Shown here: positions 17,650-22,096 of the stretch, in pieces
Numbering within the stretch: position 1 is the stretch's first letter
Layout of the letters: each line of letters starts with the position of its first letter
Assembly: GCA_009694135.1 (NCBI GenBank)
Contig: SHVS01000002.1
Span: 39,067-103,066, forward strand
Direction of reading: 5' to 3'
DNA from: Alphaproteobacteria bacterium
GTDB taxonomy: Bacteria > Pseudomonadota > Alphaproteobacteria > UBA6615
Length of the DNA stretch: 64,000 bases
Translations under genes and position numbers: made by a program
Notes under the pieces: generated by a model
What the model saw: the letters and a program-made list of their open reading frames with translations, nothing else
What the model was told of the DNA's origin: nothing
Database searches by the model: none

Positions 17650-18132
17650 ATGCGCATAACTGGCGATTTCATGGCTCAAGGCTTCATGGCTCAAGCGCTG
17701 GCTCTGGCCGAGGCGGCCGGCGCCGCCGGCGAGGTGCCGGTGGGCGCGGTGGTGGTCGAGGATGGCCGCGTGCTGGCCACGGCGAGCAATCGGGTCGAGA
17801 CCGACTCCGACCCGACCGCGCATGCCGAAATCCTGGCGATTCGCGCCGCCGCCAAGGCCCGCTCTATTCAGAAGGGGGGCACGCCGAGGCTCGAGGGCTG
17901 CGACCTCTATGTCACGCTGGAGCCCTGCGCCATGTGCGCCCAGGCGATCGCCTTCGCCCGTCTCCGCCGGGTGTATTTCGCCGCCTATGACCCGAAGGGC
18001 GGCGGCGTCGAGCATGGCGCGAAGATTTTCTCCCAGCCGAGCTGCAACCACCGCCCCGAGGTCTATGGCGGGATCGAGGAACAGCGCGCGGGGGAGATGC
18101 TGCGGGCGTTTTTTCGGTCGCAACGAGGATAA
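17650..18132 (+). CDS. tadA: tRNA-specific adenosine deaminase (A34 to inosine)
   Basis: A 160-residue zinc-dependent deaminase that converts adenosine 34 of tRNA-Arg(ACG) to inosine. The cytidine-deaminase fold motifs are present: TAHAEILAI, with zinc-binding His and catalytic Glu, and LEPCAMCAQAI, with two zinc-binding Cys. The end reads MLRAFFRSQRG, as in normal homologues, so the adjacent insertion element has not truncated the gene. The start could be any of the Met codons at residues 1, 8 or 13; the first is annotated. The left inverted repeat of the IS1595-like element begins 16 nt after the stop codon. Confidence 0.95.
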   Translation: MRITGDFMAQGFMAQALALAEAAGAAGEVPVGAVVVEDGRVLATASNRVETDSDPTAHAEILAIRAAAKARSIQKGGTPRLEGCDLYVTLEPCAMCAQAIAFARLRRVYFAAYDPKGGGVEHGAKIFSQPSCNHRPEVYGGIEEQRAGEMLRAFFRSQRG

Positions 18133-18148
18133 GCGCATACCAATTTCT

Positions 18149-18172
18149 GGAATTATACGGTTGACGTACCAC
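18149..18172 (+). repeat. Left terminal inverted repeat of the IS1595-like element
   Basis: GGAATTATACGGTTGACGTACCAC matches the reverse complement of positions 19996-20019 at 21 of 24 bases, with the inner 14 bases (GGTTGACGTACCAC) identical. The inner part also supplies the -35 hexamer of the transposase promoter. Confidence 0.85.
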
Positions 18173-18189
18173 ATGCGATCATGTAGGAT
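18161..18189 (+). promoter_or_regulatory. Predicted sigma-70 promoter of the transposase, -35 inside the inverted repeat
   Basis: TTGACG, 17-nt spacer, TAGGAT: a near-consensus vegetative promoter located 25 nt before the transposase start codon. The -35 hexamer lies within the left inverted repeat, so transposase binding there could repress its own gene; that regulatory role is inference. Confidence 0.6.
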
Positions 18190-18213
18190 GTCCTCATAGT
18201 GAGGATAAAAGAC

Positions 18214-19124
18214 ATGACCAAGCTCAGTCTTACCAGCCCGATCTACTCCAACGAAGACAAGGCGCGCGAGCATCTTGAAAGCATCCTGTGGCCGACCGGC
18301 CCAGTTTGTCCGCGCTGTGGCGTGACCGAGGACCGTATCACCAAGCTGTCCGGCAAGAGCACCCGCCCCGGCGTCTACAAATGCAAGGATTGCCGTAAGC
18401 CGTTCTCTGTCACGGTCGGCACCGTTATGGAGCGGTCGCATATTCCACTGACCAAGTGGGTGCTGGCCGCTCAACTCATGTCGTCGAGTAAGAAGGGAAT
18501 GTCGGCGCACCAAGTGCATCGGATGCTCGGCACGACATACGAAACCGCATGGTTTCTCTTTCATCGGCTACGCGAAGCGACGGTCAGCCTCAACTCTGGT
18601 CCGCTTGGTGGCGCGAACAAAGTGGTTGAGCTGACGAAAGCTATATCGGTGGCAAGGCCAAGAACAAGGCGTTCGGGCCACCACCGAAAAAAGCTGCTGT
18701 GTTCGCGCTTGTCGAGCGCGATGGCGAAGCGCGCTCGTTCCATGTCGCCAATGTCACTACTAAGACGTTGCGCCCGATCATGGTCAAACACGCCAGCCGC
18801 AAATCCTGGCTGATGACCGATGACAGCGCGGTCTATCCGAAGATTGGGCGCGAGTTTGCTGGACATAGCTCAGTCAACCATAGCGCCGACGAATACGTGC
18901 GGCTTGGTGGGTTTGCGCACAGCAACAGCGTCGAGTCATTCTTCGCCATCCTCAAGCGCGGCGTGTATGGAACCTTCCACAGCGTAAGCGAAGCGCACTT
19001 GCATCGCTATCTGAGCGAGTGCGATTTTCGCTACAACACTCGCAAGGTGTCCGATCCAGAGCGCGCCGAGTCGCTGCTACGCGGCACCAAGGGAAAGCGC
19101 CTCATGTACCGACAAGCTGACTAG
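18214..19124 (+). pseudogene. IS1595-family transposase, broken by a single-base deletion
   Basis: The N-terminal part (MTKLSLTSPIYSNEDKAREHL) begins at ATG 18214 after a GAGGA ribosome binding site and carries the family zinc ribbon (CPRCG, then CKDCRKPF). Near 18630 the frame shifts: the sequence reads gttgagctgacgaa, whereas one additional G would give V-V-E-A-D-E-S-Y-I-G-G-K, containing the first catalytic Asp. The second frame then continues with TDDSAVYPK, the second Asp region, and HSNSVESFFAILKRGVYGTF, the final acidic/Asn region, to a normal end at 19124. Both halves are otherwise intact, so the break is recent or is a sequencing error. No slippery motif for programmed frameshifting is evident. 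Confidence 0.9.
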
Positions 19125-19135
19125 GCCGCGAACGG

Positions 19136-19306
19136 CTAAGCAGAAGGCTCGCGCTTTTTTGCGTTGGCGCGCGAAGCGCCGGTCTGAGTAGGCTTCCCAT
19201 TGCCGCGATCTCGCTTAGGGCGAGGTTGCGGCGGCGTCTCTAAAAGCCTGCGCAATAGCCGGTCACGCTTGCCCTCCGCATCTCGCCCAAGATGATCTCG
19301 GTTCAT
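19136..19306 (-). CDS. Small basic 56-aa ORF inside the IS1595-like element
   Basis: This ORF is below the length cut-off of the supplied track. It begins MNRDHLGRDAEGKRDRLL and ends KKREPSA, is rich in Arg/Lys and Pro, and has GAGG 7 nt before the ATG. It fills almost the entire gap between the transposase stop (19124) and the 180-aa gene (19339), on the opposite strand. No family was recognised. The composition suggests a nucleic-acid-binding or unstructured peptide, but chance ORFs of this size do occur in GC-rich DNA. Confidence 0.45.
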   Translation of the reverse strand: MNRDHLGRDAEGKRDRLLRRLLETPPQPRPKRDRGNGKPTQTGASRANAKKREPSA

Positions 19307-19338
19307 CAAACTGCCTCAGAAGATAAGGCAACCCTAGC

Positions 19339-19881
19339 ATGGGAAAAGTCTCGGATAAATTGCCTGATTCGTTTGCGGCCCTGATTGGTCGAGTCGCCGA
19401 CAAATGGTCTCAGTTTGAGTTTCATATTGATATGGGCATATGGCAACTTGCATGTGTTGAACAGCAACTCGGAGCTTGCATTACCGCCCAACTCTTATCG
19501 ATCCATCCGAGGTTTAAGGCTTTTATCGCATTAGCTGAAATTCGCGGAGCAAAAGAAGGTACGCACAGGAAGCTGTCGAAATTTTATAGCGAAACGGCGA
19601 GCGGCCTATCAGACAGAAGGAATCGATGCCTGCATGATCCGCGTATGATTGACAAAAAAACATCTGGCGTACACAGATTAGAAATTACAGCCAAACCAAA
19701 GCTACATTTCGGATTCAAACCCGAGTCAACCGAAGACGTCAAAAAATTAGTTTCAGAAATAGATGCCGCCGTTAGAGAGTTTATTTCTATCAGGAACGCG
19801 CTGTTTGAAGAGCTAAACGCGCTGTCTCCAGAATCTCAGCCGAAACTTTCGCGAATAACTCTCGTCCTGGATCACTCATGA
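19339..19881 (+). CDS. Passenger protein with HEPN-type RNxxxH motif, 180 aa
   Basis: An unrecognised helical protein carried between the inverted repeats of the IS1595-like element. The N-terminal third resembles proteins that begin with a conserved Trp followed by a Glu and aromatic residues (DKWSQFEFHIDMGIWQL, residues 21-37). The motif RNRCLHD at residues 94-100 fits the R-N-x3-H active-site pattern of HEPN ribonucleases. Most of the C-terminal half is charged and helical. AAGG lies about 10 nt before the ATG. Composition is much less GC-rich than the chromosome. HEPN proteins act as RNA-cleaving toxins or defence effectors, but catalysis here is untested and no paired nucleotidyltransferase antitoxin is present. 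Confidence 0.75.
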   Translation: MGKVSDKLPDSFAALIGRVADKWSQFEFHIDMGIWQLACVEQQLGACITAQLLSIHPRFKAFIALAEIRGAKEGTHRKLSKFYSETASGLSDRRNRCLHDPRMIDKKTSGVHRLEITAKPKLHFGFKPESTEDVKKLVSEIDAAVREFISIRNALFEELNALSPESQPKLSRITLVLDHS

Positions 19882-20014
19882 GATCACACCATCGCTCGGC
19901 AATTATTTCCGCGCCGGCCTTTATTGCCTCTGGCGTGACTTTGATTTTCTTATCTCTGGTCGCCGGCCTGTCGGCTTCTGGATAGCCTACGATACGTGGT
20001 ACGTCAACCATAGA
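19790..20014 (-). CDS. Passenger ORF of 74 aa starting inside the right inverted repeat
   Basis: The ORF overlaps the end of the 180-aa gene tail to tail by 92 nt. The ATG at 20014 lies within the right terminal inverted repeat, so the first residues (MVDVPR) are encoded by the repeat itself, and GGGA of the repeat edge could serve as ribosome binding site. The protein is charged and helical from about residue 24 on (VTPEAIKAGAEIIAERWCDL); no family was named. The longer 85-aa version in the track would start outside the element and is disfavoured. Function is unknown; a small partner of the 180-aa protein is conceivable. Confidence 0.5.
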   Translation of the reverse strand, partial: SMVDVPRIVGYPEADRPATRDKKIKVTPEAIKAGAEIIAERWCDLMSDPGRELFAKVSAEILETARLALQTARS

Positions 20015-20019
20015 GTTCC
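19996..20019 (-). repeat. Right terminal inverted repeat of the IS1595-like element
   Basis: Read on the minus strand, GGAACTCTATGGTTGACGTACCAC pairs with the left repeat at 21 of 24 positions. It contains the start codon of the 74-aa passenger ORF, whereas the left repeat has ACG in place of that ATG. Confidence 0.85.
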
Positions 20020-20086
20020 CATAATACTGACAAAGACAGTATGGCACAGCGATAGGTCATTCCTTAGAGAACATGTACGACGGTTG

Positions 20087-20839
20087 ATGCTCGATCCAAA
20101 TAAGAGAGAGAAGTTTGGCACAGAGTTCCTCGACCGAGTTGTTTCTGCCTTAAATACACTAGAGCAACGCGCTTGGAAGGCGACGATTTTATCTTGTGTT
20201 CTTATTGGCGCTTTACTATTACAAACATTAGGAGCGAGCATTTCAATTGTATTACCTGGAATACAAATACAAAACGTAGATATTACTAAAGAGATAATTT
20301 TTCTTCTTGCAGTTTCTATAAACATATTTTCATCTTTTATTGCGTATGCTACTTATAGTCTTAGAATAATACGAGATGTCATGCTTGACGTGCTTTACGA
20401 AGATAAAACAGAAAGATATTTAGTGATCTCAACTATTCCTGAATATCTTGGATCGTCAGCCGGCATTACACATAAACAAAATGATAATTTTCATTATACT
20501 ATATACGGTTCAATATTAACATCTGTCGTTACATTAATTCCTATGTTATTAGTAATTGGCGCTTTAATGATTCCGATACTTGTTCAGGTGTATATATTGA
20601 TGGAGATTGTATACAATGGAAACGCTTCTGGCCCATGGCACGATACTTTCGTTTGGTTATCAGTGCTGTTCATGATCGGCGGTCTTTTATTATCGATATC
20701 GCGTTACATTCCGATCCCATTTACTGACTACAGCGCCTTCAACGAGCTCATGGCGCTTCAAAAAAGCAACCCGGACTTGTTCAGAGATCGATTTAGAGAA
20801 ATCATCGCCTCGGAAAATGATCGCTCCAAAAAAGAGTGA
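20087..20839 (+). CDS. AT-rich predicted four-helix membrane protein, unrecognised
   Basis: A 250-residue protein with four predicted transmembrane segments, in two pairs: about residues 33-56 and 69-93, then 147-175 and 189-209. A ~50-residue soluble loop and a charged C-terminal tail (ENDRSKKE) complete it. Codon use is strikingly AT-rich (Ile ATA/ATT, Leu TTA) against the GC-rich neighbours, a clear sign of horizontal transfer. The TTG in the track is replaced here by the ATG one codon later; no strong ribosome binding site is visible. It lies just outside the right end of the IS1595-like element and may be the remnant of a larger acquired segment. Function is unknown. Confidence 0.8.
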   Translation: MLDPNKREKFGTEFLDRVVSALNTLEQRAWKATILSCVLIGALLLQTLGASISIVLPGIQIQNVDITKEIIFLLAVSINIFSSFIAYATYSLRIIRDVMLDVLYEDKTERYLVISTIPEYLGSSAGITHKQNDNFHYTIYGSILTSVVTLIPMLLVIGALMIPILVQVYILMEIVYNGNASGPWHDTFVWLSVLFMIGGLLLSISRYIPIPFTDYSAFNELMALQKSNPDLFRDRFREIIASENDRSKKE

Positions 20840-20855
20840 CGCCCGCTATGGCGTC
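20828..20855 (-). terminator. Rho-independent terminator of purD
   Basis: On the minus strand, GACGCC-ATAGCG-GGCGTC forms a 6-bp GC-rich stem, followed after ACTC by TTTTTT. The purD stop codon TAG lies in the loop. The same bases encode the final residues of the convergent AT-rich membrane-protein gene. Confidence 0.65.
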
Positions 20856-22096
20856 CGACCTATATCCCTGCGGCAAAACCCTTCCGGCCAGTCGATAAGG
20901 TCGATAGCGGCATAGGCTTTCGCCCGCGCCTCGGCATGCGTCGCGCCCAATGCGGTGACATTGAGCACCCGCCCGCCATCGGACAAAAGCCGCGTCCCGT
21001 CGCGCTTCGTGCCGGCGTGGAACAGGGTCACGCCGTCGAGCCCGGCCAGTTTCTCCGCGCCCCTAATCTCACTGCCTTTTTTGTATTCGCCCGGATAGCC
21101 CTTGGCGGCCAGGACCACGGTCAGCGCGGCTTCTTTCAGCCAGCGCAGGTGGAAATTCTTCAACACCTCGTCGCGGGCGGCGAGCAGCGCCGGGAGGATG
21201 TCGGACATCAGCCGGGGCAGAAGCACTTGCGTCTCCGGGTCGCCGAAGCGGGCGTTGAATTCCAAAACCTTCGGCCCGTCCCGGGTGAGCATCAGCCCGG
21301 CGAACAGCAGGCCCTTGAACGGGTGGCCCTCGGCGGCCATGGCATCCACCGCCCGTTGCAGAATGGTTTCGTGGATGCGCTTTTCCAGCGCGGCATCGAC
21401 CAGCGGCACCGGGGTATAGGCGCCCATGCCGCCGGTATTCGGCCCCTGGTCGCCATCGAAGGCGCGTTTATGGTCCTGGGCAAAGCCAAAGGGCAGCGCG
21501 GTCTTGCCGTCGCACAGGGCGAAGGCGCTCACCTCAGGCCCTTCGAGGCGCTCTTCTATGACAAGCCGCCTTGACGCCATGCCAGTGGAGAAAAAGTACG
21601 TCGCTTCTAGCGTTTCCTCCGTTGTGCTACCGACCACGACGCCCTTGCCGGCGGCCAGCCCGTCGACCTTCACCACCATTGGTGTATTCTCACGGCTAAC
21701 GTAGTCGGCTGCCGCCTGCCCGCTGTCGAACACGCGATAGCGCGCTGTTGGGATACCGTGTTTCACGCACAGATCCTTCGCAAAGCTTTTTGATGCCTCG
21801 ATGCGCGCGGCGGCGGCGCTCGGCCCGAAGGCCTTGATTCCCGCCCCTTCCAGCTTATCCACGAGCCCATTGGCGAGCGGCCCCTCCGGCCCGACGACGA
21901 CGAAATCGATCTTCCGCTCGACGGCGAACGCCACCAGCCGCGCGCTGTCGTCGGCGGCGATAGGCATGCATTCGGCCTCGGCGGCGATGCCTGCATTGCC
22001 CGGGGCGGCGTAGAGCTTCGAGGTCAGCGGCGAGGCGGCGATCGCCCAGGCCAGCGCATGTTCGCGCCCGCCGCCGCCCACGATCAGAATTCGCAT
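20846..22096 (-). CDS. purD: Phosphoribosylamine-glycine ligase
   Basis: Catalyses the second step of de novo purine synthesis, joining glycine to phosphoribosylamine with ATP in the cytoplasm. The 416-residue sequence opens with MRILIVGGGGREHALAWA, contains the GPEGPLANGLVD and VKVDGLAAGKGVVV segments of the N and ATP-grasp domains, and has the GPKVLEFNARFGDPETQ motif that binds magnesium and nucleotide. Length is usual. It is divergent from xseA across a 50-nt gap and terminates at a hairpin that contains its stop codon. The gene appears monocistronic. Confidence 0.97.
   Translation of the reverse strand: MRILIVGGGGREHALAWAIAASPLTSKLYAAPGNAGIAAEAECMPIAADDSARLVAFAVERKIDFVVVGPEGPLANGLVDKLEGAGIKAFGPSAAAARIEASKSFAKDLCVKHGIPTARYRVFDSGQAAADYVSRENTPMVVKVDGLAAGKGVVVGSTTEETLEATYFFSTGMASRRLVIEERLEGPEVSAFALCDGKTALPFGFAQDHKRAFDGDQGPNTGGMGAYTPVPLVDAALEKRIHETILQRAVDAMAAEGHPFKGLLFAGLMLTRDGPKVLEFNARFGDPETQVLLPRLMSDILPALLAARDEVLKNFHLRWLKEAALTVVLAAKGYPGEYKKGSEIRGAEKLAGLDGVTLFHAGTKRDGTRLLSDGGRVLNVTALGATHAEARAKAYAAIDLIDWPEGFCRRDIGRTP

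What the first reader, a model, noticed from the sequence alone, without database searches (positions are those of the whole stretch)
18149..20019. IS1595-family element carrying an apparently unrecognised passenger module
Inverted repeats of 24 bp (21 matches) enclose a transposase gene plus three additional ORFs: 56 aa (minus), 180 aa (plus, HEPN-like) and 74 aa (minus). A transposon that moves a candidate RNA-cleaving protein with small companions would be a mobile toxin or defence cassette. The repeats and ORFs are seen directly. That IS1595 members can carry passengers is established. The defence role is inference.
Basis: partly seen in the sequence, partly recalled or inferred. Interest (0 to 1): 0.72.

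Follow-up and report, generated by a model that had tools for sequence, protein, structure and literature searches.

The report
Small transposon carrying swappable toxin-like cargo
The stretch is a worn-out copy of a small bacterial jumping element that carries a likely RNA-cutting protein, and its relatives across Alphaproteobacteria share the same frame while swapping in different toxin-like or phage-defence-like genes, so this group looks like a little-described courier of such genes.

Summary
Confirmed: 24-nt inverted repeats (21 matches) at 18149-18172/19996-20019 enclose an IS1595-type transposase and three ORFs. This copy is probably dead: the transposase is frameshifted just before its first catalytic Asp, and no 8-bp target duplication flanks it. 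Relatives settle that it is a real transposon class. Dozens of alphaproteobacterial IS1595 elements (1.65-4 kb) have matching ends, many with perfect 8-bp duplications, and nearly all carry cargo. The 180-aa protein belongs to a HEPN-like family with invariant R...H (RNxxxH) at 14-30% identity to the window copy; 17 of 43 members examined lie directly downstream of an IS1595 transposase. The three ORFs recur, but as two units. The basic 56-aa ORF belongs to the transposase side. The HEPN gene and the 73-aa ORF go together (9 of 10 genome-wide hits) and form exchangeable cargo. Sister elements carry BglII- and NotI-type restriction-modification genes, PIN, RelA/SpoT, GmrSD, SocA/Panacea or NYN genes in the same slot. 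A right-end-only DNA box (CGACAGGCCGGCG) was also found. Most likely it is a toxin/antitoxin-like or abortive-infection cargo module; toxicity and antitoxin roles are inferred. New variant of a known kind (passenger-carrying IS).

The parts
18149..18172 (+). left terminal inverted repeat; inward -35-like TTGACG with TAGGAT 17 nt further in
18199..18632 (+). transposase, N-terminal part (IS1595 zinc ribbon), first reading frame; end is the approximate frameshift point
   Evidence: PF12760 E=2.3e-13; frames
18630..19124 (+). transposase, DDE part in a shifted frame; 1-nt frameshift just before the first catalytic Asp (ADESYIGGK)
   Evidence: PF12762 E=5.5e-27 for 18699-19121; frames; relatives have one open frame
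19136..19306 (-). orf57: 56-aa very basic protein (pI 11.6), motif LLxRxLxTPPxP; backbone gene convergent with the transposase
19339..19881 (+). 180-aa HEPN-like protein, RNRCLH (R94...H99 invariant in 12 relatives)
19790..20011 (-). orf74: 73-aa small protein (pI 6.2; five relatives 4.4-5.8), motif xIxITPEMIEAG; overlaps the HEPN 3' end tail to tail and starts inside the right inverted repeat
19961..19973 (-). right-end subterminal box CGACAGGCCGGCG, 13/13 match
19996..20019 (-). right terminal inverted repeat

Best explanation
The window holds a decayed copy of a cargo-carrying IS1595-family transposon. Its backbone is left end - transposase - orf57 - [cargo slot] - right-end box - right end. 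In this copy the slot holds a HEPN-type protein with an intact RNxxxH motif, most likely an RNA-cutting toxin, plus a small, usually acidic protein (orf74) encoded tail to tail over the HEPN 3' end. I propose that HEPN and orf74 act as a toxin/antitoxin-like or abortive-infection pair that rewards keeping the element, either by addiction or by killing or arresting phage-infected cells, and that orf57 serves the element (regulation or nucleic-acid binding) rather than the toxin. Shown: element anatomy, recurrence, past mobility of relatives, exchange of cargo, coding nature of the ORFs, invariant R and H. Inferred: RNase activity, toxicity, antitoxin role of orf74, defence, role of orf57.
For: Ends and 8-bp duplications in HEPN-bearing relatives: L012 GAAAATCT, L080 TTTTAAGG, L084 GGAATCGC, L085 CTTGTTTT, L088 GAAACAAG, L089 GAAAGAAT, L015 CTTGTTGG, L025 CACTTATG (read). 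HEPN family: 17 of 43 members examined in 372 genomes have an IS1595 transposase upstream on the same strand within 2 kb; transposase-first, 13 of 37 of the closest elements with enough flanking DNA carry it (hand count). R94 and H99 invariant at 14-30% identity to the window; confident model with RNRCLH at the end of a long helix (pLDDT 89). orf74 with HEPN 14/22 against 3/32 without (Fisher p 5e-5; the three exceptions carry HEPN-like or degraded proteins), and 9 of 10 genome-wide orf74 hits adjoin a HEPN. orf57: 16 of 20 genome-wide hits within 1.5 kb of an IS1595 transposase. Transposase pairs at >=70% identity have HEPNs at about 20% (background 17.5%) but orf57 at 47% (background 33%, 23/500 permutations). 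Other cargo in the slot: BglII RE + MTase, NotI RE + D12 MTase, N6-MTase, PIN, DUF433 + PIN_10, RelA_SpoT, GmrSD_N, GmrSD_N + HEPN_MAE_28990, SocA_Panacea, NYN, KilA-N, DUF1828.
Against: No curated library names this HEPN family: Pfam PF18730 at E=0.0017 is below its cut-off, only one of 12 members matches it, and PADLOC, PHROGs and NCBIfam give nothing. No PDB fold match. More than half of the family has no IS1595 transposase beside it. Tail-to-tail overlap is not the usual toxin-antitoxin operon layout, and orf74 is not detected in about a third of the HEPN elements. The window copy has no target duplication and a broken transposase. The HEPN and orf74 profiles were built partly on element-borne members, which may inflate the association.
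Confidence: 0.55

Rival explanations
1. The HEPN gene and its neighbours regulate transposition: the HEPN RNase and the antisense overlap with orf74 limit transposase expression or cargo transcription, with no role in defence or addiction.
For: Both small ORFs lie antisense to the plus-strand genes; both ends carry an inward -35-like TTGAC; in Tn3 transposons the TA pairs sit inside the transposition module and were proposed to regulate it (PMC7157771).
Against: Sister elements do without HEPN and carry restriction-modification, PIN or RelA/SpoT genes instead, and the HEPN does not track the transposase lineage, unlike what is expected of a dedicated regulator.
Confidence: 0.15
2. The element is a generic cargo mover: the genes are random bystanders caught between ends, and the HEPN is a non-catalytic or host-benefit RNA-binding protein.
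For: Cargo is diverse and several cargo proteins have no family match; 26 of 43 HEPNs lie away from an IS1595 transposase.
Against: Assignable cargo is mostly toxin- or defence-related; R and H are invariant; orf74 stays with HEPN.
Confidence: 0.2
3. orf57, not orf74, is the antitoxin or partner of the HEPN: a divergent pair.
For: orf57 is divergent from HEPN with 32 nt between starts in the window, and is commoner with HEPN (17/22 against 13/32); L013 keeps orf57 + HEPN next to a decayed right end.
Against: orf57 is present with Dam/ParB-like, RelA/SpoT, GmrSD and DUF1828 cargo and in an element without recognisable cargo, and tracks the transposase.
Confidence: 0.1

Closest known systems
IS1595 family passenger-carrying elements (transporter IS, tIS; e.g. 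ISNha5)
   Same: IS1595 zinc ribbon and DDE domains, terminal inverted repeats, 8-bp duplications in relatives, genes unrelated to transposition; passenger-carrying IS1595 elements are described (Siguier et al. 2009, as cited in PMC11891212).
   Different: The passenger named in that citation for IS1595 is a transcription regulator (ISNha5); a recurrent HEPN + orf74 cargo, an orf57 backbone gene, a right-end box and exchange among toxin/restriction cargo were not found in the papers searched. The 2009 paper itself was not read.
Toxin-antitoxin modules in Tn3-family transposons, including the HEPN-MNT pair of TnSod9 (PMC7157771)
   Same: A toxin gene carried inside a transposon, one case with a HEPN toxin; toxin types exchanged between transposons.
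   Different: Different transposase family; the pair there sits mostly beside the resolvase; the HEPN partner there is an MNT nucleotidyltransferase, absent here.
Cthe_2314-like HEPN (PF18730; Anantharaman et al. 2013, PMC3710099)
   Same: Closest Pfam family; HEPN motif; similar length.
   Different: Score below the Pfam cut-off; the 2013 survey lists no detected gene-neighbourhood association for that family, whereas this one repeatedly rides IS1595 elements.

Membership tests
IS1595 insertion-sequence family | N-terminal IS1595 zinc ribbon and ISXO2-like DDE transposase domain | tested here: met
   PF12760 and PF12762 above their cut-offs, in two frames of a frameshifted gene
IS1595 insertion-sequence family | terminal inverted repeats beginning with GG | tested here: met
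   24 nt with 21 matches, both arms beginning GGAA; relatives alike
IS1595 insertion-sequence family | 8-bp target-site duplication | tested here: not met
   absent at the window copy; present at many relatives, so the class is IS1595 and this copy is rearranged or old
IS1595 insertion-sequence family | single open transposase frame | tested here: not met
   frameshift near 18630; an assembly error in this draft genome is not excluded
HEPN superfamily | R-x4-6-H motif | tested here: met
   RNRCLH; R94 and H99 invariant in 12 diverse relatives
HEPN superfamily | helical bundle with the motif at a helix end | tested here: inconclusive
   model pLDDT 89, helices 10-38, 42-49, 55-68, 73-99 (motif at its end), 131-160, plus three strands; no significant PDB match
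HEPN_Cthe2314 (PF18730) | score above the family cut-off | tested here: not met
   18.8 bits against 27.1
HEPN superfamily | RNase activity | not testable with these tools
   needs biochemistry
HEPN-MNT toxin-antitoxin system | adjacent MNT nucleotidyltransferase | tested here: not met
   no MNT or other Pfam match in either small ORF of the window
Toxin-antitoxin system (general) | toxin gene with a conserved small partner gene that neutralises it | tested here: inconclusive
   orf74 goes with HEPN, but neutralisation is untested
Known anti-phage defence systems (PADLOC-DB 2.0.0) | match to a catalogued defence protein | tested here: not met
   no match for 10 HEPN family members

The most novel reading that the evidence does not exclude
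Alphaproteobacterial IS1595 elements form a dedicated transposon chassis: a fixed backbone (ends, transposase, orf57, right-end box) with one exchangeable slot that is preferentially loaded with toxin, restriction or abortive-infection genes, the commonest being an undescribed HEPN + orf74 pair. The orf57 protein and the right-end box would be dedicated parts of the chassis, possibly used in cargo exchange or transposition control.
Probability: 0.35. Interest if true: 0.78.

Novelty: new variant of a known kind. Interest (0 to 1): 0.62.

Why it matters
Small IS-sized transposons are usually treated as bare transposases. If a widespread IS1595 clade is a courier for toxins, restriction enzymes and HEPN proteins, it helps explain how such genes reach scattered chromosomal sites, gives a precise search handle (ends + slot) for finding uncharacterised defence genes, and supplies a new HEPN family with a defined candidate partner to test.

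Tried and rejected
Plasmid collection search with the element: only two Mesorhizobium matches to the transposase part. Viral contigs: no relative of the HEPN. PDB sequence search with the HEPN profile: nothing significant; PDB fold search: nothing significant; viral fold library: one weak unnamed match, E=5e-3, TM 0.65/0.73. PADLOC, PHROGs and NCBIfam gave no useful name. Considered and rejected: programmed frameshifting of the transposase (close relatives have one open frame). Considered and rejected: orf74 and orf57 as chance ORFs (codon-position test). Considered and rejected: one single co-evolving three-gene cassette (identity comparison). The HEPN tree is too deep for a firm history: element-borne and other copies are interleaved, 13 label changes, starred branches force at least 4. 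An inward promoter in the right repeat driving orf74 was looked for; -35-like TTGAC is there in most, but -10 matches are weak and in the window orf74 starts upstream of it. One script failed for a missing import.

Full report
1. Observation. The 24-nt inverted repeats at 18149-18172 and 19996-20019 are real (21 matches); letter shuffles of the two ends never passed 17 matches in 300 trials. The core GGTTGACGTACCAC occurs exactly twice in 64 kb, inverted. Between them lie an IS1595-type transposase (PF12760 zinc ribbon, PF12762 DDE domain), a 56-aa minus ORF, a 180-aa plus ORF and a 73-aa minus ORF. Two features of this copy were not reported: the transposase is split between two frames, shifting just before ADESYIGGK with the first catalytic Asp, and the 8 bases outside the two ends (CCAATTTC, ATAATACT) do not match. 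The copy is therefore probably immobile by itself, unless the frameshift is an assembly error; the genome is a 1.6-Mb, 79%-complete draft with no second copy of the HEPN, and none of the 23 other family genomes searched has the HEPN gene. G+C is 54% for the element (HEPN 45%) against 66% for the window.

2. Relatives of the transposon. A scan of genome contigs with the DDE part gave 27 loci. Of these, 18 have clear inverted-repeat pairs around 1.65-3.96 kb, ending in TATxxxxTTGAC-type sequences, and several have perfect 8-bp duplications, e.g. L015 CTTGTTGG, L021 AATTTTTC, L025 CACTTATG (read). A profile of 11 transposases against 372 genomes of the class found copies in 65 genomes. I fetched 40 of these sites; most have both ends, and many have perfect 8-bp duplications. 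Almost every resolved element carries extra genes. A bare IS1595 element is about 1 kb (PMC11092175); these are passenger carriers.

3. The HEPN family. Twelve relatives align with only R94 and H99 invariant (RNRCLH in the window) at 14-30% identity to the window protein. The model (pLDDT 89, pTM 0.81) has the motif at the end of the long helix 73-99. Pfam's HEPN_Cthe2314 scores E=0.0017 but below its cut-off; PADLOC, PHROGs and NCBIfam have nothing. I call it HEPN-like on the motif, helix placement and the weak Pfam hit. In 372 genomes the profile found 44 hits in 35 genomes; of 43 whose surroundings I read, 17 have an IS1595 transposase upstream on the same strand within 2 kb. With roughly 130 transposase copies in those genomes, a random gene would have such a neighbour about once in ten thousand (my estimate). 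HEPN-bearing elements with perfect 8-bp duplications include L012, L080, L084, L085, L088 and L089 (read), so the HEPN lies inside the mobile unit. Starting from the transposase, 13 of the 37 closest copies with enough flanking DNA carry it (hand count). One site without a transposase, L013, has HEPN + orf57 beside a recognisable right end with the box: a decayed element.

4. The two small ORFs. Both are coding: in conserved columns the third codon position is most variable. orf57 (basic, pI 11.6, motif LLxRxLxTPPxP) was found 20 times in 190 genomes, 16 within 1.5 kb of an IS1595 transposase. It also accompanies non-HEPN cargo such as RelA/SpoT, GmrSD, DUF1828 and Dam/ParB-like genes. orf74 (motif ITPEMIEAG; pI 6.2 in the window, 4.4-5.8 in five relatives) was found 10 times in 190 genomes, 9 next to a HEPN. 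Among 54 elements it is present in 14 of 22 with HEPN and 3 of 32 without (p 5e-5), and those three carry HEPN-like proteins below threshold or degraded. Transposase pairs at least 70% identical have orf57 at 47% (33% overall; 23/500 permutations), but HEPN at only 20% (17.5% overall) and orf74 at 32% (36% overall). So orf57 belongs to the backbone, and HEPN + orf74 is exchangeable cargo. The window's nearest transposases (70-80% identical) carry orf57, yet have a very different HEPN (L079, L084, L015), a RelA/SpoT protein (L109) or an unnamed protein with an HNH-like start (L111) in the slot.

5. What else fills the slot. Pfam identified: DNA methylase + BglII-type restriction enzyme (L143), D12 methylase + NotI-type restriction enzyme (L144), N6 methylase (L141), PIN (L130), DUF433 + PIN_10 (L126), RelA_SpoT (L109), GmrSD_N + HNH (L114), GmrSD_N + HEPN_MAE_28990 (L116), SocA_Panacea (L134), NYN (L107), KilA-N (L146), DUF1828 (L108). 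Several cargo proteins have no match. The assignable ones lean strongly to toxin-antitoxin and restriction genes; I did not measure this against a random-gene background.

6. A right-end box. CGACAGGCCGGCG lies 44-55 nt inside the right tip at 10 or more of 13 positions in 13 of 21 HEPN or HEPN-like elements (0.12 expected) and 3 of 28 others, and in 0 of 21 left ends of the HEPN group. It falls in different frames of orf74 (DRPA, GQAG, RQAD), so it looks conserved as DNA. Its role is unknown: transposase or host-factor binding, or a site favouring exchange of cargo, are guesses.

7. Mechanism and rivals. Best reading: transposon with toxin-like cargo; HEPN as RNase toxin, orf74 as likely partner, orf57 as backbone protein. 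Main rivals: the module regulates transposition; the cargo is a mixed bag of bystanders; orf57 is the partner. Toxicity, RNase activity and phage protection are untested.

8. Known context. IS1595 has 8-bp duplications and a zinc-ribbon/DDE transposase (PMC8101967), and passenger-carrying members are known (Siguier et al. 2009 as cited in PMC11891212; the 2009 paper was not read). Tn3 transposons carry toxin-antitoxin pairs, one a HEPN-MNT pair (PMC7157771). The HEPN survey lists the Cthe_2314 family with no detected neighbourhood association (PMC3710099). No paper found links IS1595 with HEPN or with exchangeable toxin or restriction cargo, within a library limited to open-licence papers. Hence new variant of a known kind.

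9. Limits. The HEPN and orf74 profiles were trained partly on element-borne members. The HEPN tree is deep and poorly resolved. L075 and L078 carry an identical HEPN in genomes of two families, one with 10% contamination, so they may be one event or an artefact. End positions other than the window's are accurate to a few bases.

Noticed in passing
window 20084-20839 (+): Just outside the right repeat lies an AT-rich (37% G+C) orphan ORF of 251 aa that looks like a membrane protein; no relative in 141 other genomes of the class. With no target duplication, the element may sit at the edge of a larger foreign island between tadA (17650-18132) and purD (20846-22096).
   Followed up: partly
L013:5680-6522: A decayed element near a tadA-like gene, as in the window: right end, box, HEPN and divergent orf57 remain, transposase gone. 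The region beside tadA may be a recurrent insertion site.
   Followed up: partly
L021:4521-8334 and L034:4521-8480: Mesorhizobium IS1595 elements carry what look like a Dam-type methylase plus a ParB-like protein (read from sequence) with orf57; L021 has an AATTTTTC duplication.
   Followed up: no
L143 and L144: Complete type II restriction-modification pairs (BglII-type, NotI-type) packed in 2.7-2.8 kb IS1595 elements.
   Followed up: partly
window 19961-19973 and right ends of relatives: Right-end-only subterminal DNA box CGACAGGCCGGCG of unknown function.
   Followed up: partly
L075 and L078: The same HEPN protein, identical, in two genomes of different families; recent transfer or contamination.
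   Followed up: no
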